Shown here one piece after another: positions 6,979-59,132 of a stretch of 64,000 nt of DNA (its first letter is position 1; every line of letters starts with the position of its first letter). A model generated the notes under the pieces. The model was given only the letters and a program-made list of their open reading frames with translations. It had not been told where the DNA came from and ran no database searches. The DNA is taken from positions 1-64,000 of the forward strand of contig NZ_LIRF01000003.1 in assembly GCF_001297705.1 (NCBI RefSeq), given 5' to 3'. The position numbers were made by a program, and so were the translations under genes. Origin of the DNA: Chryseobacterium sp. ERMR1:04 (GTDB taxonomy: Bacteria > Bacteroidota > Bacteroidia > Flavobacteriales > Weeksellaceae).

Positions 6979-7881
6979 TCAGACTTCAATTTCCGTTTTA
7001 AATACTACGGTAGCCTCACCTTTTATTTTAATTAGGATAGGAAGGCCATTTTCAATGGTAACACTTACGTTTACCACTCCAAGTCTGCCCATTTTTTCTC
7101 CCTGCTTGCCTTTGAATTCGTATATGTTATCTTTAGAATCAATGATTTTATTCTGTATTAAATATCCGCCTAAAGGTCCGTTTGCATTCCCTGTAACCGG
7201 ATCTTCATTGATTCCGATTACCGGGGCAAACATCCTTCCATAGGTCAATACGTCATTATCGTCCGAATCAAATGTGAAAACAAAATATCCGTTGCAGTTG
7301 ATCTGTTTACTTAGATGGATCAAACTATTATAATCGGGATTCAGGCTGTTGAGTTTTTCCTTACTTTTTATACCAATCATCACTTTTGAGTGTCCTGTAG
7401 AAGCAATTTGTATCGGGCATCTTTCATCAGTATCAGAATGCTCAAGTCCCAAAGCTGCTAATAGTTGTTGCGCTACAATAGGATCAAATGTAGGACTGAG
7501 TTCAAATGTACCTTGAGTCATGATGACTTGGTAATCTTCTTTTTCTTTAATGATTTCGAAGGGAAGAATGCCAACCTGAGTTTTATATCTTAAAATACAA
7601 GAACCCAAATTATCTTCAATCGCTTTCGCATACATTGCAGAAATTGTAGCATGCCCACAAATCGGGACTTCTGATTGTGGTGTAAAATATCTTATTAAAC
7701 CGTCAGAATTACTATCGTCGGGAGAAAAAAGGAAAGCCGTTTCAGAATTGTTTAGTTCTTTTGCAATTTGCTGCATTTGTACAGCATTTAATCCATCTGC
7801 ATTTACGACAACTCCTGCTGGGTTTCCACTAAATTTCTCTTTTGTGAAAGCATCTATTTGATAAATTTTAAAAGTTTTCAT
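6979..7881 (-). CDS. PhzF-family isomerase/epimerase
   Basis: This 300-residue protein has the PhzF (diaminopimelate-epimerase-like) fold. It begins KIYQIDAFTKEKFSGNPAGV, the family hallmark, followed by the catalytic glutamate in LNNSETAFLF (E47), then PICGHATISA, and in the second half FAPVIGINEDPVTGNANGPLGGYL with its D-P-V-T-G-x-A. Length and motif order are normal. PhzF proteins occur widely outside phenazine producers, and no phenazine genes are nearby, so only a generic isomerase function is supported. It appears to be transcribed alone. Confidence 0.88.
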   Translation of the reverse strand: MKTFKIYQIDAFTKEKFSGNPAGVVVNADGLNAVQMQQIAKELNNSETAFLFSPDDSNSDGLIRYFTPQSEVPICGHATISAMYAKAIEDNLGSCILRYKTQVGILPFEIIKEKEDYQVIMTQGTFELSPTFDPIVAQQLLAALGLEHSDTDERCPIQIASTGHSKVMIGIKSKEKLNSLNPDYNSLIHLSKQINCNGYFVFTFDSDDNDVLTYGRMFAPVIGINEDPVTGNANGPLGGYLIQNKIIDSKDNIYEFKGKQGEKMGRLGVVNVSVTIENGLPILIKIKGEATVVFKTEIEV

Positions 7882-8030
7882 AATCTTTTTAATTTTGTTA
7901 GGAGCATAGATAGAGCCCGTTTACAAGGAAAGATAAATAAGATTTCAAATATAGCCTATTTTATAGCACGCATCATGCTTTACCGTAATAACAATCAAGG
8001 GAATTATTCCAAATAATTTTTATAAGGGAA

Positions 8031-8100
8031 TACTTTGAGGTTTGTCTCGGAGTTAAAGGAGGAAAAGTTGAAAACAGATAGTTTTTCATAAGATTAAAAA
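8031..8100. repeat. Decayed extra copy of the IS200/REP-type left end
   Basis: The 20-mer at 8033-8052 (CTTTGAGG-tttg-TCTCGGAG) is a diverged version of the palindrome CCTCGAGG-cttg-CCTCGGGG that flanks the transposase at 8327. The stem is still pairable through G-T pairs. The next 45 bp (AAAGGAGGAAAAGTTG, TAGTTTTTCATAA) also align with the sequence just inside the intact left end (8260-8300). It is probably the scar of an earlier insertion. Confidence 0.6.
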
Positions 8101-8239
8101 TAGTATATCTTCCATTGAATATCTGATATACTAACTCTTGTATGCTTAACTCAATGATTTTAATCTTAAATATTAGTATATAAACTTTTACTTTCGTTTC
8201 ATAAATAAGAGCCTGTTTAAATTTTATTCTAAAAGAATA

Positions 8240-8802
8240 CCTCGAGGCTTGCCTCGGGGTCAAAGCGTAAAAGTTTGAAAAACGGAGGGTTTTTCATAAC
8301 ACTTTGAAAAAGTGTAGATTTGATTTGTGGATGAACATATTTACAAAAGGCACAATAAAAGTTTGCTTTTATATCATTTGGTTTTTCCAATGAAATATAG
8401 GAGAGAAGTTTTAACGAAAGAAATAGGAGATAGCCTTAGGCTAATATGCGTTGGCATTTCAGAACGCTATGAGATTCAATTTGTAGAAATTGGTTATGAG
8501 TGTGACCATGTTCATTTTTTAGTTCAAAGTGTTCCAAGTATCTCGGTTTCAAAATTAGTAACACTTATAAAAAGTTTGAGCGCGCGAGAATTATTTAAAG
8601 CACATCCAGAGATAAAAAGGATTTTATGGGGAGGTAATTTGTGGACAAGCGGTTACTATGCTAATACAGTTGGTCAATATGGAAATAAAGATGTTATTCG
8701 AAAATATATTGAAAACCAAGGGAAAGAAGTAGAATATAAAAAAATCCACGGCGAACAACTCAAGCTATGGGATTAACCAATACCTCGAGGCTTGCCTCGG
8801 GG
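8240..8802 (+). mobile_element. IS200/REP-type (Y1) element nested in the IS5-type element
   Basis: Two identical 20-bp imperfect palindromes, CCTCGAGG-cttg-CCTCGGGG at 8240-8259 and 8783-8802, bracket a Y1 transposase gene. Terminal hairpins in place of inverted repeats, and no target duplication, are the hallmark of IS200/IS605 and REP-associated transposases. Removing the segment joins the IS5 transposase tail to a TTC-TTT-TAG ending. This shows that the insertion landed directly before the host transposase stop codon. Confidence 0.8.
8327..8776 (+). CDS. tnpA: IS200/REP-associated tyrosine transposase (TnpA)
   Basis: The product has 149 residues with a GTG start (no better ATG is available). 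It is a single-strand DNA transposase of the Y1 HUH type. The HUH motif is visible as CDHVHFLVQSVP, and the catalytic tyrosine lies in the helix TSGYYANTVGQYGN. The N-terminal LLYHLVFPMKYRREVL is typical of the family. Length is normal and the frame intact, so the enzyme may be active. It sits between two matching terminal hairpins inside an older IS5-type element. Confidence 0.88.
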   Translation: MDEHIYKRHNKSLLLYHLVFPMKYRREVLTKEIGDSLRLICVGISERYEIQFVEIGYECDHVHFLVQSVPSISVSKLVTLIKSLSARELFKAHPEIKRILWGGNLWTSGYYANTVGQYGNKDVIRKYIENQGKEVEYKKIHGEQLKLWD

Positions 8803-8803
8803 T

Positions 8804-9587
8804 AGTTTATTAAATAATAATTTTTTAGCAGATAATTTGACCATGTTTTCAGAATTTTCCATTAGCAATTCATAATTTCGGCAAAGTCTTCTGTCATTAT
8901 CAAACCAAGAAAACGTTCTTTCAACAATCCATCTTTAAAGAGTTTTTCTTTATTGTCAGAGCGTAAAACAACCTGAATGATGTAACCAAACTTATCTTTT
9001 ATTTCTTCAATAACATTTCCTCTATAGCCACCGTCTGCTAAAATCACTTTAACCGAAACCAAAAGATAATGGAGTGTTCTCATCAATAATAAAGCAGCTT
9101 TACTATCGTTAAAATTGGCTACACTTACCATTACAGCTAACAAACCCCCATTCTTATCTACTACAACATACCTTTTAATTCCTTTTACCTTTTTATTACC
9201 ATCAAAACCATTAAGAGAACGATTGTTTCCCCAACGAACGCTCTGACTGTCTATAATACCTAAACTTGCTTCTGCATTTTGTCCTCTCTTAACTTGTACC
9301 TCTTCTCTTAAATTCGTCAGAAGTAAATCGAATAATTCTAAATTACTCCATTTAGAGTAATAATAGTAAACCAATTGCCATTTGGGATAATTTGAAGGGA
9401 GCATTCGCCACTGACAGCCTGTTTTTACGATATAATAAATAGTATTCCAGATAATACATAAATCATGTTTTCGCTTTCTATCATCAAAATCAAGCGTTTT
9501 TTTATAAATTGCCACTGAGTAAGGGTTAAGTCTGTTGGATAAATCATTTTTTTGTTTTGCAGCTCTAGATTGATATTTTTGATCCAA
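8804..9587 (-). pseudogene. IS5-family DDE transposase, frameshifted
   Basis: The first frame reads 241 residues. It has the helix-turn-helix/catalytic start (TLDFDDRKRKHDLCIIWNTIYYIVKTGCQWRMLP), the first Asp in LGIIDSQSVR and the second in LADGGYRG. Near 8935 the frame is lost. The alternative frame continues the expected C-terminus as WIVERTFSWFDNDRRLCRNY, with the catalytic Glu, and then KLSAKKLLFNKL up to the insertion junction. Adding one A to the AAA at about 8935 gives KRWIVERTFSW, the normal family sequence. The gene is both frameshifted and interrupted at its last codons by the IS200-type element. Confidence 0.85.
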
Positions 9588-9811
9588 TTAACATCCCTTA
9601 CGCTTTTTTATTTACATTTTTAAACAGGCTCTTAGATTTTTAATTTTGTCTCTAGCTGGATGTTAAATTGATTTATAATAATTTCATAGAGCTATTTAAC
9701 ATAATAAAATTTATTAATTAATCCTACTATGGAGAGTTATATTTATTATATATTTGTAATAAGCGGATTCCGAAAAGCTAAAAGAGTAGGAAGAAAAACA
9801 AAATATTAACT

Positions 9812-9997
9812 ATGAAAAATTTAGAAAAATTAAAAGGAAAAAAACTAGGTAATTTAAAAGATGTTATTGGTGGAAAAATTGATATGAACAATGCTATTGG
9901 CCCTTGCGGTGGAACAGGTTCATACGACGATCCTCATGTATTAGAAACACTTACATTGATTAAAGGCGGAGGAGGTAAAAATGACGGATGTGACTAG
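9812..9997 (+). CDS. GG-leader RiPP precursor peptide of a grasp-with-spasm cassette
   Basis: This is a 61-residue peptide. The leader MKNLEKLKGKKLGNLKDVIGG is Lys/Leu-rich and ends in a double glycine, as in the GG-motif natural-product precursors of Bacteroidota. The core starts KIDMNNAIGPCGG and ends in a GGGG run followed by GCD. It carries two cysteines (PCGG and GCD), acidic residues (D/E) and Thr/Ser/Lys that could form side-chain ester or amide crosslinks. A -7-like element TATATTTG lies at 9749, about 60 bp upstream. The gene is separated from the maturases by a strong hairpin, which favours precursor over enzyme transcripts. Confidence 0.8.
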   Translation: MKNLEKLKGKKLGNLKDVIGGKIDMNNAIGPCGGTGSYDDPHVLETLTLIKGGGGKNDGCD

Positions 9998-10022
9998 TCA
10001 TTTTATTTTTAGAAAAAAATTA

Positions 10023-10049
10023 AAGACTCTTTATATAATAAAGAGTCTT
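10023..10049 (+). terminator. Perfect 12-bp hairpin between precursor and maturases
   Basis: AAGACTCTTTAT pairs exactly with ATAAAGAGTCTT around a three-base loop (ATA), followed by CCTTTAT. The T-run is modest, which suits a partial terminator or an mRNA-stabilising 3' end on the precursor transcript, with read-through into the ATP-grasp gene. Confidence 0.75.
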
Positions 10050-10075
10050 CCTTTATCTATTAATTTGTAAAAAAC

Positions 10076-11041
10076 ATGATTTTAATTTTATCAACTCCAA
10101 ATGATGACGATACAAATATTGTAATGGAGCATTTGGCTATTCTAGAAGAAAAATATATAAGAATAAATGATCTGGACTTATTTAATGGAAATACAAAAAT
10201 GTATTATGAACTTTCACCAGTACCTAGCCTTTTTGTAGAGAATATTTTTTTTGGAAAGATAAACTTATCAGATATTAAATGTGTATGGTACAGGAAATTT
10301 GGCTTCTTCGATAAATTTAAACAAAATTTTGAGAGTGAAATCAACATTGAGATGTTAGATTATTTAAAATCAGAATATACTACTATATTAGATATCTTTT
10401 TTGAGTTTCTCAAAGATAAAAAATGGCTTAATCATTATTCAAAAGTAAAAAAATTAAATAAAATAAGTACTCTTATAACTTCCCAAAAAATAGGATTAAG
10501 TATTCCCAAAACAGAAATAACAAATAATAAAGATTTATTAGATCTGAACGAATCATATATTACTAAATCAATAAAAGATGGCACAGTTATTAATGTCAAG
10601 GAAAAAATATTCTTTTTTTTGACAAAGGAAATTAACCTTCAAACAATGGGTCATTATAAAAATTTCTTTCCAAGTTTATTTCAGGAGAAAGTAAATAAAG
10701 AGTACGAGCTTAGAATTTTTCATTTAAACGGGAAAAACTATCCTATGGCTATTTTTTCTCAAAGAGATACACAAACAGGAGTAGATTATAGGCATTATAA
10801 TTATAGTAGACCAAATAGAATGATTTCCTATTCTTTACCTCAGGAAATTGATGAAAAAATTTGCCACCTTATGAAAAAACTTGAACTTGATACAGGGTCA
10901 TTGGATATCATAAAAGGTAAAGATGGAAAATATTATTTTTTGGAAGTAAATCCTTCCGGTCAGTTTAGGATGACATCAATGCCATGTAATTATAATCTTC
11001 ATTATGAGGTTGCATGCTGTTTAAAAAAAATGAATACATGA
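10076..11041 (+). CDS. gwsG: ATP-grasp peptide maturase (grasp-with-spasm system)
   Basis: This 321-residue protein belongs to the ATP-grasp ligases that form omega-ester or omega-amide bonds in microviridin-like peptides. It starts MILILSTPNDDDTNIVMEHL, has VWYRKFG near residue 80, the nucleotide-binding lysine region ESYITKSIKDGTV, then QEKVNKEYELRIFHLNG (family E-x-R) and the metal-site signature YYFLEVNPSGQFRMTS near the end. That order matches the maturase of the grasp-with-spasm type. It follows the GG-leader precursor and overlaps the next small gene by ATGA-type coupling, so it acts on that peptide in the cytoplasm. Confidence 0.85.
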   Translation: MILILSTPNDDDTNIVMEHLAILEEKYIRINDLDLFNGNTKMYYELSPVPSLFVENIFFGKINLSDIKCVWYRKFGFFDKFKQNFESEINIEMLDYLKSEYTTILDIFFEFLKDKKWLNHYSKVKKLNKISTLITSQKIGLSIPKTEITNNKDLLDLNESYITKSIKDGTVINVKEKIFFFLTKEINLQTMGHYKNFFPSLFQEKVNKEYELRIFHLNGKNYPMAIFSQRDTQTGVDYRHYNYSRPNRMISYSLPQEIDEKICHLMKKLELDTGSLDIIKGKDGKYYFLEVNPSGQFRMTSMPCNYNLHYEVACCLKKMNT

Positions 11042-11238
11042 AAAAAACATTATTAAAAGAAATGGGATATGAAAAAAAGAAAGAGTTACTTCCTATTATT
11101 TTCTCCCATACAATGCCAATGGATATTAAAAAAATAAAAAGAGAGCGCCCATTTAGAATGGTTGAAACTTCCATTCATCAGTCAGAAATCTATTGTTTAA
11201 GAATATATAAAGATGGAATTAACATATCTACAGAATAA
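11038..11238 (+). CDS. Small basic protein in the RiPP cassette, unknown function
   Basis: This frame encodes 66 residues from an ATG overlapping the ATP-grasp stop codon (translational coupling). It overlaps the SPASM gene by 26 bp at its 3' end. The sequence is Lys-rich with KKELLPIIFSHTMPMDIKKI and then PFRMVETSIHQSEIYCLRIY. It has no signal peptide and no recognised motif. Its place between the two maturases argues that it is a real cassette member, perhaps an immunity, scaffold or partner protein. Confidence 0.55.
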   Translation: MKKTLLKEMGYEKKKELLPIIFSHTMPMDIKKIKRERPFRMVETSIHQSEIYCLRIYKDGINISTE

Positions 11239-12210
11239 TAAAGATAAATATATTCATGTATTTTCATGCTGTATACCTGTTAAAGGACATGAAAGAGGTG
11301 CTATATATGATCTTCAGAGAGAAGAAATTGAATTGGTACCTAATACAATGATAGAGTTTTTAGACTATATCAAAAACAAAAAAGTTAGTTCTATCCTGAA
11401 AGAATTTGAATCAGATATAATGGCTAAAACATATCTTGATTTTTTAGAAAAGAATGAATTTATCTTTTATTCAAATACAGATTTTTTTCCTGAATTAGCA
11501 GCCAAAAGTATAAATGAAGATACATCTACTATACAGTTTATGACCATAATACTGTCAGAGTTTATTAAAAATAATTTAGATATTGTTATAAAAAGAATTA
11601 ATGAACTGGGAGTAAAAAGATTACATTTTCATATTGATAGCAATAATTGTATGGAAGAAATAAATTATCTTTTGCATTTATTAGAATATTCCAGAGTTAC
11701 TAATGTTTCATTTTCAATACCTTATCAAAAAATTGATAAAAAATTATACAATAATAATCGGTTAAAAAAATATATCTATTTAGTTCTCCCAAAGAAAAAG
11801 TGGAAAAAAATAATGAAGTAACTAATATTTTTATAACTGTAAGCGATGCTAAGATATTCTTGCCAAAATTTAATATCAATACTGTAGAAGTTAATACTGC
11901 TGCCTATAATATTGCAAGAAATTATAATTTATCAATATATAAAACAATAATTGTAAATCATGAAGGGAAAATTAAGTATAATATTTCAGAAAGGAATAGT
12001 TATGGTAATATCACAGATTCGTATAAAGAAATATCAACTAAGACAATTAAAAGACTATCTATCCTTTGGAATATCAGGAAAGATAGTATAGCTCCATGTA
12101 ATATCTGTGAGTTTAGATTATGTTGTACAGTAGCCCATATTCCTTTAAAAAAAGAGAATGGGTATGCAGTGAATTGTAATTATGATCCATACAAGGCAGA
12201 ACTAAATTAA
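11213..12210 (+). pseudogene. gwsS: SPASM-domain peptide maturase, frameshifted in an A7 run
   Basis: Two frames together read one protein of about 332 residues. The first part (HVFSCCIPVKGHERGAIYDL) has the N-terminal pattern of the SPASM partner of grasp-with-spasm systems, and there is no CxxxCxxC radical-SAM motif. The second part ends in a SPASM-like cysteine set, CNICEFRLCCTVAH followed by a later Cys (NCNYDP). The join lies at seven A's at 11804-11810: an eighth A would read W-K-K-N-N-E-V and continue. It may be a sequencing miscall, a phase-variable switch or decay. A restart at GTG 11800 could also give a separate C-terminal protein. Confidence 0.75.
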
Positions 12211-12211
12211 G

Positions 12212-12811
12212 ATGATCAAAAAACTGAAAACACTATTGACTGTTCTTTGTTTAATCTTTATAATGCAAAGTTGTAAAAATTATTATTATTTGAAACATAG
12301 GCCTGTAGCTTATAATGAAGATGGAAATAGCATACATGATTTAAAAATTTCTAATGAGAATATCCAATTTATTACTTTTTCAGATTATCAAATCAATAAA
12401 TTAAATAAAAAATATATTTTCTTTACGACTAAAGATATAAATCGTCTCCTCCAAGAAAATATTAAAAAACCTTTCAGTCAACAATTCTTATTTATGTATA
12501 CCAATATGAGTATTTATAATAATTTGTTAGGATTTTATTATGAAGACACATCATTGGAGGATGTGATGAAAGACTATAATAAAACGCCAGATGTTAGCTT
12601 GGAAAATGGAGTTTTATATATATATAATTTTGAAAAATGGAATATAATAGATATTTATAGAAAATATTATGGTGGAGTAGTGAGATTTATTAATCTGAAC
12701 AATCCTAATGAAAATGATCCTCAATATAAAAAATTCCACCGTGAGGTTAATAATCTTTTTTTCGACCTTAATAAGAATCTGTGGAAAAAAAATGCAATAG
12801 ATTTTCAATAA
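12212..12811 (+). CDS. Lipoprotein of unknown function in the RiPP cassette
   Basis: This 199-residue protein has a type II signal peptide (LLTVLCLIFIMQSC, lipid-modified Cys at 21), so it is expected at the periplasmic or outer membrane. The mature part is Tyr/Asn-rich with no domain I recognise. It starts one base after the SPASM frame ends and is followed 16 bp later by the VKOR gene, clearly one transcription unit. A role in handling or self-protection from the exported peptide is possible but not shown. Confidence 0.65.
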   Translation: MIKKLKTLLTVLCLIFIMQSCKNYYYLKHRPVAYNEDGNSIHDLKISNENIQFITFSDYQINKLNKKYIFFTTKDINRLLQENIKKPFSQQFLFMYTNMSIYNNLLGFYYEDTSLEDVMKDYNKTPDVSLENGVLYIYNFEKWNIIDIYRKYYGGVVRFINLNNPNENDPQYKKFHREVNNLFFDLNKNLWKKNAIDFQ

Positions 12812-12827
12812 TTTTTAAAGACTTAAT

Positions 12828-13685
12828 ATGGTTGAAAGTATTGGCAATATTTTAAAATATCTTGAAAAAAAAAAAATTACCTTAGATCGAAATAAATTTT
12901 CTTCCCAAGTTAATTCCCATCCAACATTTCCAAGTTTATTATCGATAGTTAGTGCTTTGAATATTAACCAGATCTGTAATTATGTGATAGAAATAGATGA
13001 TTCCGAAATAGGTGAGCTTCCTATTGATTTTATGGCTTTTATGACAGTTTCAAGCCATAAACAGGAACTTAATTATATTGAGAAGATAAGTGAAGGGTAC
13101 GTAATTAATGGCAAATACAATATTAGTGAACAAGTGCTACTTTCAAAATGGACTAATATAGTTGTTTTAATTGATGAAACCCAGACTGTACATCCAAAAA
13201 AGATAAGTAGCAGAAAATATCATTTATTATTTGTCGCAATTTGCTTCCTATTTTTGTTAATATTTTTGTACAGTTTTATGAATTTATATTTCTTTATTTA
13301 TCTGGTTTTATCTTTATCTGGTTTTTTTATATCAGTACTTTCATTAAGAAACGTATTTGGAATAGAAAGTTCTATTGTTAGTAAAATGTGTTTTGGTAAC
13401 TATACAGACTGTTCATTTTCAGATGTCAAAAGTACAAACTTTCTCTCAAATTTTGGAGATTACAGCCTTGTGTACTTTTTTACTAATATAATCTTTATTT
13501 TATTTCTCATCAATAGCCAGATTAATGATGTTTTTTTTAATATACAAAGATTATTATTGGTAATTATTCTACCTATAATAGCCTATTCTTTTTTTTATCA
13601 GTTGCTCAAAATTAAAAAAGTATGTCCTTTGTGTATAGGAATTATAATTATTCTACTCTTACAAACCTATATTTTGATGATTTGA
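12828..13685 (+). CDS. Vitamin-K-epoxide-reductase (VKOR) domain protein with C39-like N-terminus
   Basis: This 285-residue membrane protein is predicted to oxidise a thiol partner and pass electrons to quinone. Residues 1-100 resemble the non-catalytic C39-type domain found in Bacteroidota peptide exporters and VKOR fusions (SHPTFPSLLSIVSALN). From about residue 130 there are several hydrophobic helices. The VKOR cysteines are present: a loop pair in CFGNYTDCSF and the active-site CxxC in VCPLCIG near the end. Beside a DsbA-like protein and a two-cysteine peptide, it is best read as the oxidant for a peptide disulfide. Confidence 0.8.
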   Translation: MVESIGNILKYLEKKKITLDRNKFSSQVNSHPTFPSLLSIVSALNINQICNYVIEIDDSEIGELPIDFMAFMTVSSHKQELNYIEKISEGYVINGKYNISEQVLLSKWTNIVVLIDETQTVHPKKISSRKYHLLFVAICFLFLLIFLYSFMNLYFFIYLVLSLSGFFISVLSLRNVFGIESSIVSKMCFGNYTDCSFSDVKSTNFLSNFGDYSLVYFFTNIIFILFLINSQINDVFFNIQRLLLVIILPIIAYSFFYQLLKIKKVCPLCIGIIIILLLQTYILMI

Positions 13686-13686
13686 T

Positions 13687-14343
13687 ATGAATTTGAAATC
13701 TTTTATTCCTCTAGTTTTATATGCTCTTATCTATTTAATCATCTTTGTTTTATGGTATTATATCAAGATGTTTTTAAAACAGAATGAGCAAAACAGAAAT
13801 CAGCTTATAAGAAAAAATAGAGTCATCAGAAATCATAATGTTTTTATTAATACCTTGGAGAAGCAAGAAAGATTAGAACTACCAGTATCTATGTTTGTTT
13901 TGGGAAATAAAAATTGTGATTTAGAATTAACGATATTTACCAGTCTACACTGTGAAATGTGTGGAGATATATGTGAAATTATTGACAAAATAATTTTTGC
14001 ATATGAAGATCAAATAAAAATAAATTTTTTTTTTAAAACTCAAATTTCTCGTGAGAAGAACGTTTTTTTGTATTTACTTCATGGTATTTTTTTATTTAAG
14101 GGAGAAAAGGAATTTTTAAAAGCGTTGCGCTTTTGGTTTAAAAATAAAAGTTTGACACCATGGAAGATTGATGAATATAATACTGAAGAAAATAAAGACT
14201 CCTTTAAATATTTAAATGACTGGTTTTCCCAAAATGGAATTATCTCCACACCCTCAATTTTTATAAATGGATATATTTACCCATACGAATTTGAAAAAGA
14301 AGATTTATATTATTATATAGAAGGAATTATAGAGAACAAATAA
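13687..14343 (+). CDS. DsbA-like thioredoxin-fold protein
   Basis: This 218-residue protein has an N-terminal membrane anchor (residues about 5-28) and a thioredoxin-fold domain outside the cytoplasm. The active site is CEMC in LTIFTSLHCEMCGDICE, and the cis-proline is in GIISTPSIFINGYIYPYEF. The helical insertion between them is typical of DsbA/thioredoxin_4 proteins. It begins one base after the VKOR stop, so the two are co-transcribed. They form a plausible disulfide-forming couple for the cassette peptide. Confidence 0.8.
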   Translation: MNLKSFIPLVLYALIYLIIFVLWYYIKMFLKQNEQNRNQLIRKNRVIRNHNVFINTLEKQERLELPVSMFVLGNKNCDLELTIFTSLHCEMCGDICEIIDKIIFAYEDQIKINFFFKTQISREKNVFLYLLHGIFLFKGEKEFLKALRFWFKNKSLTPWKIDEYNTEENKDSFKYLNDWFSQNGIISTPSIFINGYIYPYEFEKEDLYYYIEGIIENK

Positions 14344-14901
14344 TAAAAAAGGAATACTCAATTATAAAGGTAGGAATTGTGAGATATCATCTTAGTTCTC
14401 TTAGAGGTTACTTGGTTCAAGTATTTATATTACAGGTGAAGATGTTAAGATGAATTTTCTTTTCAAGAATCAAGAAAAATAATATTTAGATGCCCATTCT
14501 TCGTATTTTCTATTGCGGTCTATGCAGATAATGGATACAAACTACTTTCAAATACTCAGTTTTTCAGAATCTTTGTTATGTAAGGCAAAACCCTACAGCC
14601 TGTTTTGAAAAACGGTTTTTGCTAACTATTTTCATCATAAGGTAGGGTTGGTAGAATAAAATCTTACGATATTTTACTTGGCTACCGTTGCTTAATGTTC
14701 TACCGTTAAGGTCGCAAAAAGCCCTTTTACTTCAAGCAAAGTCCTAGCTTGTTGAATGCTATGTTTCATTATAAATGGTACATAAATATGCAGGCAATGG
14801 ATGAAAAACTCATGAGTGTCTATTGTGTACACATTGAGTCTGACAATATTTTTGCATTCATAGCCTGACTCGTTGATTAGTTGCTCTAGATTGGTAATGG
14901 T
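14344..14901. other. Gene-poor gap with a possible ORF remnant
   Basis: No intact gene is visible. On the minus strand an open frame without a usable start runs from about 14897 to the stop at 14692 and includes HEFFIHCLHIYVPFIMKHSI and RTLLEVKGLFATLTVEH; it may be the tail of a lost gene. Around 14583-14650 the segments GCAAAACCCTAC and GTAGGGTTG form a loose inverted repeat. The expected exporter genes of the RiPP cassette are not here. Confidence 0.4.
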
Positions 14902-17301
14902 TTATTTTAAGATTCTATTATCATAAAGCAGATTATCGTCTTCATCAAAACTTATAATCAAAACTTTGTATTGTTTGGCGCTGTCGTTATTATAGAATTT
15001 AATTCTCGGCGGAACATAATCGCTATCAAATAAATTAGGATTCCAGTATAGGGTTTCTCGAGTGTCATTTTCGATTTTTTTTGAAGCATCATCGTCTAAC
15101 ATTTCAATAGGGAATTCTGAAGGCATATCATAACCTTTTACTATAGAGAGGTTATTTTTTTTCGTGTCTTTTTCAACATTCTTAGATTTCAGATCACCTC
15201 TCATGGTATAGATTGCAACCGCATCGCCTATTAATCCTGATGCTTTTATAATTTTCACCATAGCAATATTGCTTATAGGAAGACTTGTAATCATAGAGGG
15301 CTCAGCAGGCATTTCATCTAAATATAGCTTAGCTTGTTGACCACGAATATAAGGGACATTCTCCCCTGAATTATTTCTCTGAAAGGTTAAACCGGCAGCT
15401 CTTCCTTGTAGCCAATCTAAAATATTAGTTGATAAAGCCGCATTTTGGTTTTCGTTTACAAAATCAAATATCGTAGAATTCATAGAGTTAAACATTCCGC
15501 TGGACAGTTGTTTGTTTAATTCTTCTTTTGGATCTTGTTTTTTTCCTACTATTTTTACTTCTTCAATTTGCACATCAATATTTTCAGCTTTTTTGTTGTT
15601 TTTCTGACTTGTGATGGCTCTGGAAATAGATGGAGGAAGTTTTCTATTCTCGGTAGCTTTCACCAATTTGTATTTTGTACTGGGGAAATTACCTTTAAAT
15701 TGTGTGGGATTTACCAAGGGTTCTACTGTGACGAATAAATTATCAGTACTTGATTCTTTACTTTTCTCTGAATTCACAAATAATGAAATTCCCAAAGGTT
15801 CATTGAAATTAAGGTTATCTAAATAAACATATCCGTTTTGATCAGTTTTAAATAGATTAATAATGGGTTCCTTTTCCCCTAATTTTAAAGCTAATGTTAC
15901 ACTGGTATCTTTTAGTAAAGCATTGTCTTTAATCGGTTTTACTTTATAAGATAGAAATTTTTGAGAACTGGTTGTAATGGTAGGTTGAGATCCGCTAAGT
16001 ACAGAATTCCAATCAAATCTTTTCCAATTTTCAGAAATAAGTAATGCGTCTAACGCTTCGGCATTGGCATTTTTAGTAAAATATTGTGCGGGTGCATCTA
16101 CTTTTGACGTAAAATCTCCTGTTAGCCAAAGACCACTGAGTAGATTTTCTTCTTCCACCGGGTTGCTACCATCATCATCGCTTACCAAAACGGTGTAATT
16201 TTTAAAATAGGACTCTGGGGAAAGGTCAATACTGTTGAATGATCTTGGCGTATGCTTTAAATTCTGACTGATAATGTCTGCTTTCTCAATCTTTAAATTA
16301 TTAGGCTTTATAAAACAAAGTCTTTTAGCAACAAGATTATCCTGTTCATCAAAAATAGCTAATTGTAAAATAGCATTAGCTCCAGTGCTTATTTTTGTAG
16401 GAATAAGACTTGAAGCATCATTCGTTAGCTGAGTAATATTGGCTCTGTAAGCAAGATGATTATTGATGGTTCCAACAATCTTATAATTTTGAAGCTGTTG
16501 TTTTAAATTAACTCCTTTTAAGCTGTATTTAATACCATCGTTAGAACTGTGAACTTCTAAATTAAGACCACTGCTTGCCACTTGTGGTAAATCTATTGTT
16601 TGTTTTTTTCCTGTATTGTCCTGAATAAGGGCTTGATATTTTTTTCCTAAAGCCGGAGTTAAGGTAAAAGAAGCAACATTTTTATCAAACGATGTAAACG
16701 TGGTGATCGATACATTTGGATTTTGTGCATCTATAATTTTCCCGGTCCATTTTTCCGGTAAAGAACTATCGCTTGATAATCTTACTGCAAATTTTGTAGG
16801 CATCCCATTGATGAAAGTTCCTCCTTCTGGAAAAGCTTTAGCAGACCAATTAGGATTCTTAGCAATCTCTAATGTTTCGGTGGATTTTGGATTATAAATC
16901 GGAATCGTTTTAGCGATCTGAAAATCTTCACTAAAATTCGTCATGTAGGGAGTATAAGCTCTTACGAAGTAAACCTGCTCCGGAAGATCTTCTTTCAGTT
17001 TAAAATCTCCGCTCCCTTCACCATTGGTTAGAAGGATGGTTTTCCAGTCTATTAATTTTTTATCAGCACTGTACAATTCAACAAATAGAGTGGTAGACAG
17101 TGTCGTTCGGTTATAGCCATCAAATACAAAGCTTTTGAACCAGATTTGGTCACCCGCAACATACTGTGATTTGTCGGTAAGTAAATATACTTTTTCTTGG
17201 TCGTAATTATTCTCAAGATTGGTAATTGCTTTGTCTAGTTTAGTTTGTGATAATACGGGTTGTACACTTGAAATAAGCAATAAAAAGAATATATTTTTCA
17301 T
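14902..17301 (-). CDS. Secreted MG2-type protein with a TonB-receptor plug-like domain
   Basis: This 799-residue protein has a signal peptide (MKNIFFLLLISSVQPVLSQ). The N-terminal third resembles macroglobulin MG2 modules (VYLLTDKSQYVAGDQIWFKSF; EQVYFVRAYTPYMTNF). Around residues 610-700 a TonB-receptor plug-like segment appears (ILDWLQGRAAGLTFQRN; IRGQQAKLYLDEMP; ISNIAMVKIIKASG). There is no beta-barrel after the plug, so it is not a transporter on its own. This architecture is common in flavobacteria and its role is unknown; surface binding or partnering with a barrel is an inference. It appears to be monocistronic. Confidence 0.78.
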   Translation of the reverse strand: MKNIFFLLLISSVQPVLSQTKLDKAITNLENNYDQEKVYLLTDKSQYVAGDQIWFKSFVFDGYNRTTLSTTLFVELYSADKKLIDWKTILLTNGEGSGDFKLKEDLPEQVYFVRAYTPYMTNFSEDFQIAKTIPIYNPKSTETLEIAKNPNWSAKAFPEGGTFINGMPTKFAVRLSSDSSLPEKWTGKIIDAQNPNVSITTFTSFDKNVASFTLTPALGKKYQALIQDNTGKKQTIDLPQVASSGLNLEVHSSNDGIKYSLKGVNLKQQLQNYKIVGTINNHLAYRANITQLTNDASSLIPTKISTGANAILQLAIFDEQDNLVAKRLCFIKPNNLKIEKADIISQNLKHTPRSFNSIDLSPESYFKNYTVLVSDDDGSNPVEEENLLSGLWLTGDFTSKVDAPAQYFTKNANAEALDALLISENWKRFDWNSVLSGSQPTITTSSQKFLSYKVKPIKDNALLKDTSVTLALKLGEKEPIINLFKTDQNGYVYLDNLNFNEPLGISLFVNSEKSKESSTDNLFVTVEPLVNPTQFKGNFPSTKYKLVKATENRKLPPSISRAITSQKNNKKAENIDVQIEEVKIVGKKQDPKEELNKQLSSGMFNSMNSTIFDFVNENQNAALSTNILDWLQGRAAGLTFQRNNSGENVPYIRGQQAKLYLDEMPAEPSMITSLPISNIAMVKIIKASGLIGDAVAIYTMRGDLKSKNVEKDTKKNNLSIVKGYDMPSEFPIEMLDDDASKKIENDTRETLYWNPNLFDSDYVPPRIKFYNNDSAKQYKVLIISFDEDDNLLYDNRILK

Positions 17302-17509
17302 AGAGATCTTCGCGCATCCTTAATGCGGTGCTAAATTACTCATTTAAAGATTTCAAAATTGATATTTGCCTTGTAATTTAACAAATTAAAGCGATTTTTT
17401 TAAATAATAAGCTTAATTCATAATATTTTACACCCTATATAAGACGTGAAGCATTTCATTAAGAATTAAAATCAGATTTTTTTCGGGTAAGAGAACAGTG
17501 TTACATTAA

Positions 17510-57410: not shown

Positions 57411-59132
57411 ATGAGTTTAAACGTAGACAGAAAACAATACGCGAATATATTAGGCCCAACGACAGGAGACCGAATCCGACTGGGTGATACAGAAATGATC
57501 ATTGAGATCGAAAAAGATTTTACCCACTATGGGGATGAAGCTGTTTTCGGAGGAGGTAAAACGGTACGTGACGGGATGGGACAAAACGGGACCGCCAAAA
57601 GAGATGAAGGAGTCTTAGATCTTTGTATTACAGGCGCAACGATTATTGACCACTGGGGAATTGTAAAAGCAGATATCGGAATTAAAGACGGTAAGATTGT
57701 TGGTATTGGTAAAGCAGGAAACCCTGATACAATGGATGGAGTAACTCCCAATATGATTATTGGTGCTTCTACAGAAGTTCATGGCGCAAAAGGACATATT
57801 GTAACGGCTGGAGGAATTGATACACACATTCATTACATCTGTCCGCAACAGATTGAAACGTCTCTTTATAGCGGTATTACGACGATGATCGGAGGGGGAA
57901 CCGGACCTAATGACGGGACGAATGCAACCACCGTTACTCCAGGGAAATTCAACCTTCAAAAAATGTTGGAAGCTGCGGAAGAATACCCTATGAATTTAGG
58001 ATTTTTTGGTAAAGGAAACTGTTCTACCGAAGGACCAATTGAAGAGCAGGTAGAAGCAGGAGCGTTGGGTGTGAAGATTCATGAAGATTGGGGCGCTACG
58101 CCTGCAGTAATTGATGCTTCGTTAAAAGTGGCTGATAAATATGATGTTCAGGTGGCGATCCACACAGATACGTTGAATGAAAGTGGCTTTTTGGAAGATA
58201 CAATGAGAGCGATTAATGGAAGGGTAATTCATACATTCCACACAGAAGGTGCAGGCGGTGGGCATGCTCCGGATATTATTAAAGCTGCCATGTATCCGAA
58301 TGTACTTCCGGCTTCTACAAATCCTACACGTCCTTATACCATTAATACGATAGATGAACACTTAGATATGTTGATGGTATGTCACCATTTAAGTAAAAAC
58401 ATTCCTGAAGATGTAGCATTTGCAGATTCACGTATCCGTCCGGAAACGATTGCAGCAGAAGATATTCTACATGATATAGGCGTGTTCAGTATTATGAGTT
58501 CAGATTCTCAGGCGATGGGAAGACCGGGCGAAGTCATCATCAGAACATGGCAGACGGCTAGTAAAATGAAAGAACAGCGCGGTCACTTAGAAGAAGATGA
58601 AAATACAGAGCATGATAATTTCCGTGCAAAACGATATATCGCAAAGTATACTATTAATCCTGCTATTGCGCATGGAATTTCAGAATATGTAGGCTCAATT
58701 GAAGCTGGGAAAATGGCTGATCTAGTAATCTGGAAACCTGCATTATTTGGAGCAAAACCTGAAATGATTGTTAAAGGAGGTTTTGTAATTGCCAGCAAAA
58801 TGGGAGATCCGAATGCGTCTATTCCAACGCCACAACCTGTTATCTATAGAAATATGTTTGGTGCTCATGGCCGTGCGAAATACGGAACGTGTGCTACGTT
58901 TGTTTCTCAGATCTCTATTGATAATGGAGCGATTGCAAGTTATAAACTAGAGAAGATGATTCTTCCGGTAAAAAATTGCAGAAATATTTCTAAAAAAGAT
59001 CTTATTCATAATGATAAAACACCTGTAATTGAGGTGAATCCTGAAAACTACAAAGTAACAGTAGATGGGGTGCATATCACTTGTGAACCGGCGGAGAAAC
59101 TTCCGTTAACTCAATTGTATTTTTTATTCTAA
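57411..59132 (+). CDS. ureC: Urease subunit alpha (catalytic)
   Basis: This 573-residue catalytic subunit carries a complete active site. By alignment with Klebsiella numbering (+5) the nickel ligands are H139 and H141 ([10 protein letters not shown]), the carbamylated K222 (GVKIHEDWG), H251 ([12 protein letters not shown]), H277 ([15 protein letters not shown]) and D365 (SSDSQAMG). The flap cysteine is C324 with its histidine neighbour (MVCHHLS). No residue is missing. It needs UreD-F-G-E, encoded downstream, for nickel loading. A weak GC stem follows at 59142-59166. Confidence 0.98.

What the first reader, a model, noticed from the sequence alone, without database searches (positions are those of the whole stretch)
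9812..14343. Grasp-with-spasm peptide cassette that adds its own disulfide machinery
Seen: GG-leader precursor with two cysteines in the core, ATP-grasp ligase, SPASM partner without a radical-SAM motif, lipoprotein, VKOR and DsbA-like protein. Known: such ATP-grasp enzymes make side-chain ester/amide links; VKOR plus DsbA-like proteins make disulfides. Inference: the product is a crosslinked peptide that also carries a Cys-Cys bond between PCGG and GCD. The function of the final peptide is unknown.
Basis: partly seen in the sequence, partly recalled or inferred. Interest (0 to 1): 0.75.

Follow-up and report, generated by a model that had tools for sequence, protein, structure and literature searches.

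The report
Disulfide enzymes in a graspetide cluster
A Chryseobacterium gene cluster that ties a small secreted peptide into rings with one enzyme also carries its own pair of enzymes for making a disulfide bond, one of which probably docks on the peptide's leader; the combination looks new but is built from known parts, and one gene is broken in this strain.

Summary
Window 9812-14343 (Chryseobacterium) is a grasp-with-spasm graspetide operon: GG-leader precursor with two core cysteines, ATP-grasp ligase (above the TIGR04192 cut-off), LPL-like protein, SPASM protein, lipoprotein, VKOR protein, DsbA-like protein. The SPASM gene is in two frames here but intact in 12 of 12 nearest relatives. 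Both cysteines occur in 13 of 13 clade-A precursors and in a Flavobacteriaceae MAG with the same VKOR-DsbA pair; clade B (6 loci) has one cysteine and no split pair. Against a strict link, clade C (7 loci) has two cysteines and no local pair, and the family-wide association is only borderline once clades are collapsed. New here: the VKOR protein begins with a C39-peptidase fold lacking the catalytic cysteine, so it may dock on GG leaders; fused relatives sit near 6-8-cysteine GG peptides in 11 of 12 loci, against 6 of 80 random control points; the SPASM protein lacks a radical-SAM motif and may carry an RRE. Best reading: a graspetide with an added, dedicated disulfide, exported in trans; no chemistry is shown. 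The searches made found no report of the combination. New variant of a known kind.

The parts
9760..9792 (+). DUF805b cis-regulatory RNA element, ends 19 bases before the precursor start codon
   Evidence: Rfam RF02914, 44.9 bits, gathering score 35.6
9812..9997 (+). GG-leader graspetide precursor, 61 aa, two core cysteines (in PCGG and NDGCD)
   Evidence: both cysteines in 13 of 13 clade-A loci and in L115
10023..10049 (+). hairpin between precursor and ATP-grasp gene, possibly an attenuator or processing site
   Evidence: fold z-score -3.15 in the window, hairpin also in 4 of 4 clade-A relatives, L115 and L081 folded
10076..11041 (+). ATP-grasp peptide maturase (GwsG)
   Evidence: TIGR04192 273.5 bits, cut-off 230; PDB relatives AMdnB and CdnC
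11038..11238 (+). small LPL-like protein directly upstream of the SPASM gene
   Evidence: position, and by eye a short LPI stretch like the LPL motif described in PMC8939145; no family model hit
11213..11821 (+). SPASM protein (GwsS), first frame: RRE-like domain and degenerate barrel
   Evidence: TIGR04193 positions 1-169; fold from intact relative L118
11800..12210 (+). SPASM protein (GwsS), second frame, with the SPASM cysteines; frame changes in the region of the A-rich overlap
   Evidence: TIGR04193 positions 220-331; intact in 12 of 12 relatives
12212..12811 (+). predicted lipoprotein
   Evidence: lipobox by eye; relatives in 11 of 12 clade-A and 7 of 7 clade-C loci, none in 6 clade-B loci
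12828..13685 (+). C39-like domain (1-118) fused to VKOR membrane domain (151-285)
   Evidence: cysteines 188, 195, 266, 269 invariant in 16 of 16 rows
13687..14343 (+). DsbA-like protein with CxxC and cis-Pro, N-terminal membrane stretch by eye
   Evidence: Thioredoxin_4; C89, C92, T188, P189 invariant in 12 of 12 rows

Best explanation
This is a graspetide operon with a dedicated disulfide step. Inferred order: (1) the SPASM protein, a non-catalytic partner with an RRE-like domain, and the LPL-like protein present the precursor leader; (2) the ATP-grasp enzyme links Thr/Ser to Asp/Glu side chains in the core; (3) the C39-like domain of the VKOR protein, without a protease cysteine, holds the GG-type leader at the inner membrane; (4) the C39-ABC exporter, encoded elsewhere in the genome, cuts at GG and exports the core; (5) in the periplasm the DsbA-like protein, recharged by VKOR and quinone, joins the two cysteines, one early and one at the end of the core. 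Gene content, motifs, predicted folds and conservation are shown; every chemical step is inferred. In the window strain the SPASM gene is in two frames, so output there may be reduced unless this is a sequencing error or is bypassed.
For: ATP-grasp family above cut-off. Tight gene order: gaps of -4, -26, 1, 16 and 1 bases from ATP-grasp to DsbA. dN/dS of 0.2 or less in the window's comparisons wherever dS could be computed. Catalytic cysteines of VKOR invariant in 16 of 16 rows and of DsbA in 12 of 12. Split VKOR: the 12 genus hits besides the window with E below 1e-95 are the 12 clade-A ATP-grasp genomes. Two cysteines in 13 of 13 clade-A precursors and in L115, a MAG outside clade A with the same pair and a C39-ABC exporter in one locus; one cysteine and no split pair in clade B, 6 of 6. 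C39 fold for VKOR residues 1-118 (ComA 5xe8: Z 12.7, 2.2 A over 112 residues; a C39 protease solved with its leader, 6mpz: Z 12.3), profile match to exporter C39 domains E 3.1e-6, no cysteine in the first 49 residues of any of 16 rows. Of 12 loci of near fused relatives, 11 have a GG-type peptide with 6-8 cysteines within 5 kb on the same strand, against 6 of 80 random control points with the same filter; the own genome has the same arrangement. In bacteroidetocin loci deletion of the thiol oxidoreductase gene weakened the toxin (PMC6671954, passages).
Against: Clade C has two cysteines (7 of 7) but no local VKOR/DsbA (7 of 7). One clade-B locus (L080) has a fused VKOR-Trx about 2 kb downstream with a one-cysteine precursor. 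Association over the family: at least two core cysteines in 18 of 21 loci with VKOR against 13 of 40 without (p 0.0001), but 6 of 9 against 7 of 25 after collapsing clades (p 0.057); at least one: 21 of 21 against 25 of 40, collapsed 9 of 9 against 13 of 25 (p 0.013); a first, smaller count gave collapsed p 0.18 and 0.057. The own genome has a second, fused VKOR-Trx that could do the job. No exporter lies in the window locus. The SPASM gene is broken in this strain. No chemistry was measured.
Confidence: 0.6

Rival explanations
1. The VKOR/DsbA pair does not act on this precursor but on other secreted substrates (Cys-rich GG peptides or envelope proteins) and merely travels with the operon.
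For: Fused relatives lie near Cys-rich GG peptides; 2 of 12 clade-A relatives (L063, L064) have such a peptide within 5 kb on the same strand; clade C keeps two cysteines without the pair.
Against: The split pair is one-to-one with the clade-A ATP-grasp genomes in the genus and recurs in L115; 10 of 12 clade-A relatives have no such peptide by the same filter; the own genome already has a fused VKOR-Trx beside its Cys-rich peptides.
Confidence: 0.15
2. The cysteines are used otherwise: thioether, metal site, or intermolecular dimer.
For: PMC8939145 proposes thioethers by the SPASM enzyme for cysteines in this branch (passages and section 6 part 1); clade B has a single cysteine, which cannot close on itself.
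Against: None of 54 SPASM proteins has the CxxxCxxC motif, so radical-SAM thioether chemistry is unlikely; paired cysteines come with an oxidising pair in clade A and L115.
Confidence: 0.15
3. In this strain the cluster is decaying and makes nothing: SPASM gene broken, GLPGLI gene lost, transposases next door. This can be true together with the best explanation for the family.
For: Two frames for SPASM; a GLPGLI gene follows DsbA in L063 (TIGR01200 140.9 bits) and, by eye, in L074 and L115, but not in the window, where only a weak 13-residue trace was found (E 0.02); IS200- and IS5-type transposase genes at 8327-9587.
Against: The other genes are intact; both SPASM pieces show dN/dS of 0.2 or less against 7 relatives (one comparison without a usable dS), so a break would be recent or a sequencing error.
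Confidence: 0.35

Closest known systems
Grasp-with-spasm graspetides (branch 5 of PMC8939145; probably group 14 of PMC13097080; TIGR04192/TIGR04193)
   Same: ATP-grasp, SPASM protein, small LPL-type protein, lipoprotein and GG-leader precursor
   Different: Adds a C39-like-VKOR protein and a DsbA-like protein; 'VKOR', 'vitamin K' and 'disulfide' do not occur in the main text of PMC8939145, nor 'VKOR', 'disulfide' or 'thioredoxin' in that of PMC13097080
Bacteroidetocins, class IIf bacteriocins (PMC6671954, passages)
   Same: GG-leader peptide with cysteines and a thiol oxidoreductase in Bacteroidota
   Different: The four-gene region described there has no ATP-grasp or SPASM gene; here no ABC exporter or five-TM protein stands in the locus
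Fused C39-like-VKOR-Trx protein near Cys-rich GG peptides (own genome L156; 11 of 12 loci)
   Same: Same domain order and the same VKOR cysteines in the 4 fused rows aligned
   Different: Here split into two genes and placed inside a graspetide operon; 19-27 percent identity to 4 fused rows, 27-37 percent in the listed genus hits
Stryphnines, sponge knottins with a Ser-Glu side-chain ester and disulfides (PMC13418204, passages)
   Same: Ester and disulfides in one peptide
   Different: Animal peptide; its authors found no grasp enzyme in the sponge transcriptome

Membership tests
Grasp-with-spasm graspetide system | ATP-grasp maturase over the TIGR04192 cut-off | tested here: met
   273.5 bits, cut-off 230
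Grasp-with-spasm graspetide system | SPASM partner over the TIGR04193 cut-off | tested here: not met
   Window pieces 74.6 and 51.5 bits; intact relative L118 131.4 bits over model positions 1-331, cut-off 175. A divergent relative by alignment and fold, so the system is filed as a variant
[quoted passage not shown]
   GG in the window, AG in the 12 clade-A relatives
Grasp-with-spasm graspetide system | side-chain ester or amide crosslinks in the product | not testable with these tools
   no chemistry available
Radical SAM peptide maturase | CxxxCxxC cluster motif | tested here: not met
   absent in 54 of 54 SPASM proteins
VKOR disulfide oxidase | loop cysteine pair and CxxC in a VKOR membrane fold | tested here: met
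   16 of 16 rows; 4nv5 Z 12.3, 3.0 A over 125 residues
VKOR disulfide oxidase | score over the Pfam VKOR cut-off | tested here: inconclusive
   window 23.5 and L118 18.7 under, L115 32.6 over the cut-off of 27.5
DsbA-like thiol oxidase | CxxC and cis-Pro in a thioredoxin-family protein | tested here: met
   Thioredoxin_4 26.3 bits, cut-off 23.2; residues invariant in 12 of 12; its fold was not predicted
C39 peptidase | C39 fold | tested here: met
   (model mean pLDDT 78.6)
C39 peptidase | catalytic cysteine near the N-terminus | tested here: not met
   no cysteine in residues 1-49 in any of 16 rows, against the invariant D-C-G-P of 10 exporter domains
RiPP recognition element | winged-helix RRE fold at the N-terminus of the SPASM protein | tested here: inconclusive
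   model residues 12-93 match MccB (Z 7.4, 78 residues, 3.4 A) and TbiB1 (Z 7.0); Z under 8
Bacteroidetocin class IIf | five-TM protein and C39-ABC exporter in the same locus | tested here: not met
   no such ORF in window 7500-17500; the only C39 peptidase match of the genome is on another contig

The most novel reading that the evidence does not exclude
A C39 domain without its protease cysteine, fused to VKOR, acts as a leader-reading adaptor: the same GG leader that directs export first brings the peptide to a membrane disulfide synthase. As a fused protein this leader-guided oxidation module serves Cys-rich GG peptides in Flavobacteriales; in one Chryseobacterium clade and one other lineage a split form is built into a graspetide operon, giving peptides closed by both side-chain esters and a disulfide. 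One cysteine aligns with an Asp of the wider family's DDGDD motif, so the disulfide may stand in for a lost ester ring.
Probability: 0.35. Interest if true: 0.7.

Novelty: new variant of a known kind. Interest (0 to 1): 0.5.

Why it matters
If true, it adds a disulfide step to the graspetide repertoire, gives a reason why a degenerate protease domain is fused to VKOR, and makes disulfide formation in secreted peptides of Bacteroidota directly testable. The SPASM protein as a leader-binding partner without radical chemistry is also testable and would revise its reading as a radical-SAM enzyme.

Tried and rejected
Radical-SAM thioether chemistry: rejected as main reading, no CxxxCxxC in 54 SPASM proteins. 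Strict coupling of VKOR/DsbA with two cysteines: rejected because of clade C and the borderline collapsed tests. Promoter-like sites no more frequent than in shuffles (42 against mean 39.1). Split VKOR outside the genus: among 395 genomes of the order, hits at E 1e-26 outside the genus were 5, all in open frames of 524-538 aa, that is, fused; L115 came from another collection. ATP-grasp relatives at E 1e-58 in the same 395 genomes: 8, all in the genus. Literature, listings only: 'grasp-with-spasm' 0 papers; VKOR with bacteriocin, leader peptide and disulfide 0; 'graspetide' 37 papers, 31 listed; some searches listed 20 of 627, 15 of 212 and 12 of 14. The disulfide passages of three graspetide papers describe no natural graspetide disulfide as a biosynthetic step. 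Supplementary files were not read.
Full report
What is there. Window 9812-14343 holds, on the + strand, a precursor (61 aa), an ATP-grasp enzyme (321 aa), a small LPL-like ORF, a SPASM protein in two frames, a lipoprotein, a VKOR protein (285 aa) and a DsbA-like protein (218 aa). From the ATP-grasp gene on, gaps are -4, -26, 1, 16 and 1 bases. A hairpin of 12 pairs stands between precursor and ATP-grasp, with a hairpin at the same place in 4 of 4 clade-A relatives, L115 and L081 folded. A DUF805b RNA element precedes the precursor.

Relatives. Among 173 genomes of the genus, 12 have an ATP-grasp relative of 78-85 percent identity; all 12 have an intact 332-aa SPASM protein, VKOR and DsbA, and 11 the lipoprotein. 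A scan of named genomes gave 51 loci and shows the genus to be Chryseobacterium. The tree has clade A (13 rows with the window, support 99/99), clade B (6, 100/99) and clade C (7, 100/98); L115, a Flavobacteriaceae MAG, groups with A and B (97/92), the order of these three being unsure.

Cysteines. Both core cysteines are present in 13 of 13 clade-A precursors, in L115 and in 7 of 7 clade-C precursors; clade B has one cysteine in 6 of 6. In the alignment the clade-A NDGCD lines up with DDGDD of the wider family, so one cysteine stands where others have an acidic residue that could be an ester acceptor; this rests on a short, gappy alignment. The split pair of VKOR and DsbA is present in clade A and L115 and absent from clades B and C in the stretches fetched; the clade-B locus L080 has a fused VKOR-Trx gene about 2 kb downstream, followed by Cys-rich peptides and an exporter. 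On the tree, two changes explain the VKOR pattern and one the cysteine pattern.

Association over the wider family. In 44 named loci, two or more core cysteines occur in 13 of 15 with VKOR against 11 of 29 without (p 0.003), collapsed by clade 4 of 6 against 6 of 19 (p 0.18); one or more in 15 of 15 against 19 of 29 (p 0.009), collapsed 6 of 6 against 10 of 19 (p 0.057). With unnamed genus loci added: 18 of 21 against 13 of 40 (p 0.0001), collapsed 6 of 9 against 7 of 25 (p 0.057); and 21 of 21 against 25 of 40 (p 0.001), collapsed 9 of 9 against 13 of 25 (p 0.013). No locus with VKOR had a core without cysteine. This is suggestive, not proof. The lipoprotein follows the N-terminal part of the core more closely: present in clades A (11 of 12 relatives), C (7 of 7) and L115, not found in B (6 loci).

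Enzymes. VKOR cysteines 188, 195, 266 and 269 are invariant in 16 of 16 rows, 4 of them fused relatives; DsbA C89, C92 and T188-P189 in 12 of 12. The AlphaFold model of the window VKOR protein (mean pLDDT 78.6, pTM 0.51) gives a C39 fold for residues 1-118 (ComA 5xe8 Z 12.7, 2.2 A, 112 residues; 6mpz, a C39 protease with its leader peptide, Z 12.3; 3zua, 'a C39-like domain', Z 11.0) and a VKOR fold for 151-285 (4nv5 Z 12.3). A profile comparison with exporter C39 domains agrees over 78 columns (probability 88, E 3.1e-6). The exporter domains have an invariant D-C-G-P near the start; none of the 16 VKOR rows has a cysteine in residues 1-49. So the domain is probably a binder, not a protease; that it binds leaders is inference.

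SPASM protein. L118's protein was modelled well (pLDDT 90.2). Residues 12-93 resemble RREs (MccB, TbiB1, Z 7.0-7.4, below the level at which a common arrangement is excluded); the rest resembles SPASM radical-SAM enzymes (8vpo TigE Z 11.1, 5wgg 10.3, 6c8v PqqE 9.9). CxxxCxxC is absent from 54 of 54 proteins; four C-terminal cysteines are invariant in 39 aligned proteins, while many wider members have about eight in that half (read from the positions). I read it as a non-catalytic partner; a partner-dependent graspetide synthetase is known in another group (PMC13097080, abstract and passages).

Where the peptide goes. The own genome has one C39 peptidase match, in a locus with a fused VKOR-Trx protein of 516 aa, two GG peptides with 6 cysteines each, the ABC exporter and an HlyD protein (L156). 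Of 12 further loci of near fused relatives, 11 have a GG-type peptide with 6-8 cysteines within 5 kb on the same strand; with the same filter, random points in 40 loci gave 6 of 80 and clade-A relatives 2 of 12. With bacteroidetocins this makes disulfide formation in GG peptides the likely wider task of the module.

Standing of the strain. The SPASM frame changes in the region of an A-rich overlap (11800-11821); 12 of 12 relatives are intact. In the window's comparisons dN/dS is 0.2 or less wherever dS could be computed; dS is near saturation, so values are rough. The break is recent, or a sequencing error.

Known or new. The grasp-with-spasm family, LPL proteins, lipoproteins and conserved cysteines in such precursors are described (PMC8939145, passages and section 6 part 1). 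VKOR and disulfide are not in its main text. The searches showed no report of the combination, as far as their listings go; most subscription papers and all supplements were not seen. I file it as a new variant of a known kind.

Noticed in passing
window 9760-9792; L173, L174, L176, L182 (own genome): DUF805b RNA elements: 12 in the own genome, 8 over the gathering score; in 11 of 12 an ORF starts about 15-29 bases downstream. Three precede peptides with a GG leader (the best hit, in the exporter locus; this precursor; L182, below the gathering score) and a fourth a similar leader with GNG. It may mark a group of secreted peptides.
   Followed up: partly
L034, L035, L046, L051, L056, L057: DUF805b elements over the gathering score in 6 of 20 relatives scanned, about 20 bases before the graspetide precursor in the four + strand loci; several clade-A loci without it carry a divergent XRE-type regulator gene instead.
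   Followed up: partly
L063 9280-10092: A GLPGLI-family gene (TIGR01200 140.9 bits) follows DsbA and is missing from the window.
   Followed up: partly
window 57566-57861 (-): Rfam match to the 5' ureB small RNA (73.6 bits, gathering 40) opposite the urease gene; it may only reflect conserved urease coding sequence.
   Followed up: no
window 8327-9587: IS200/IS605 and IS5-type transposase genes directly upstream of the operon.
   Followed up: no
L165-L170: A family of 6-cysteine GG peptides ending in GNGDSYCNGTFCCG-like sequence lies just before fused VKOR-Trx genes in several Chryseobacterium genomes.
   Followed up: no
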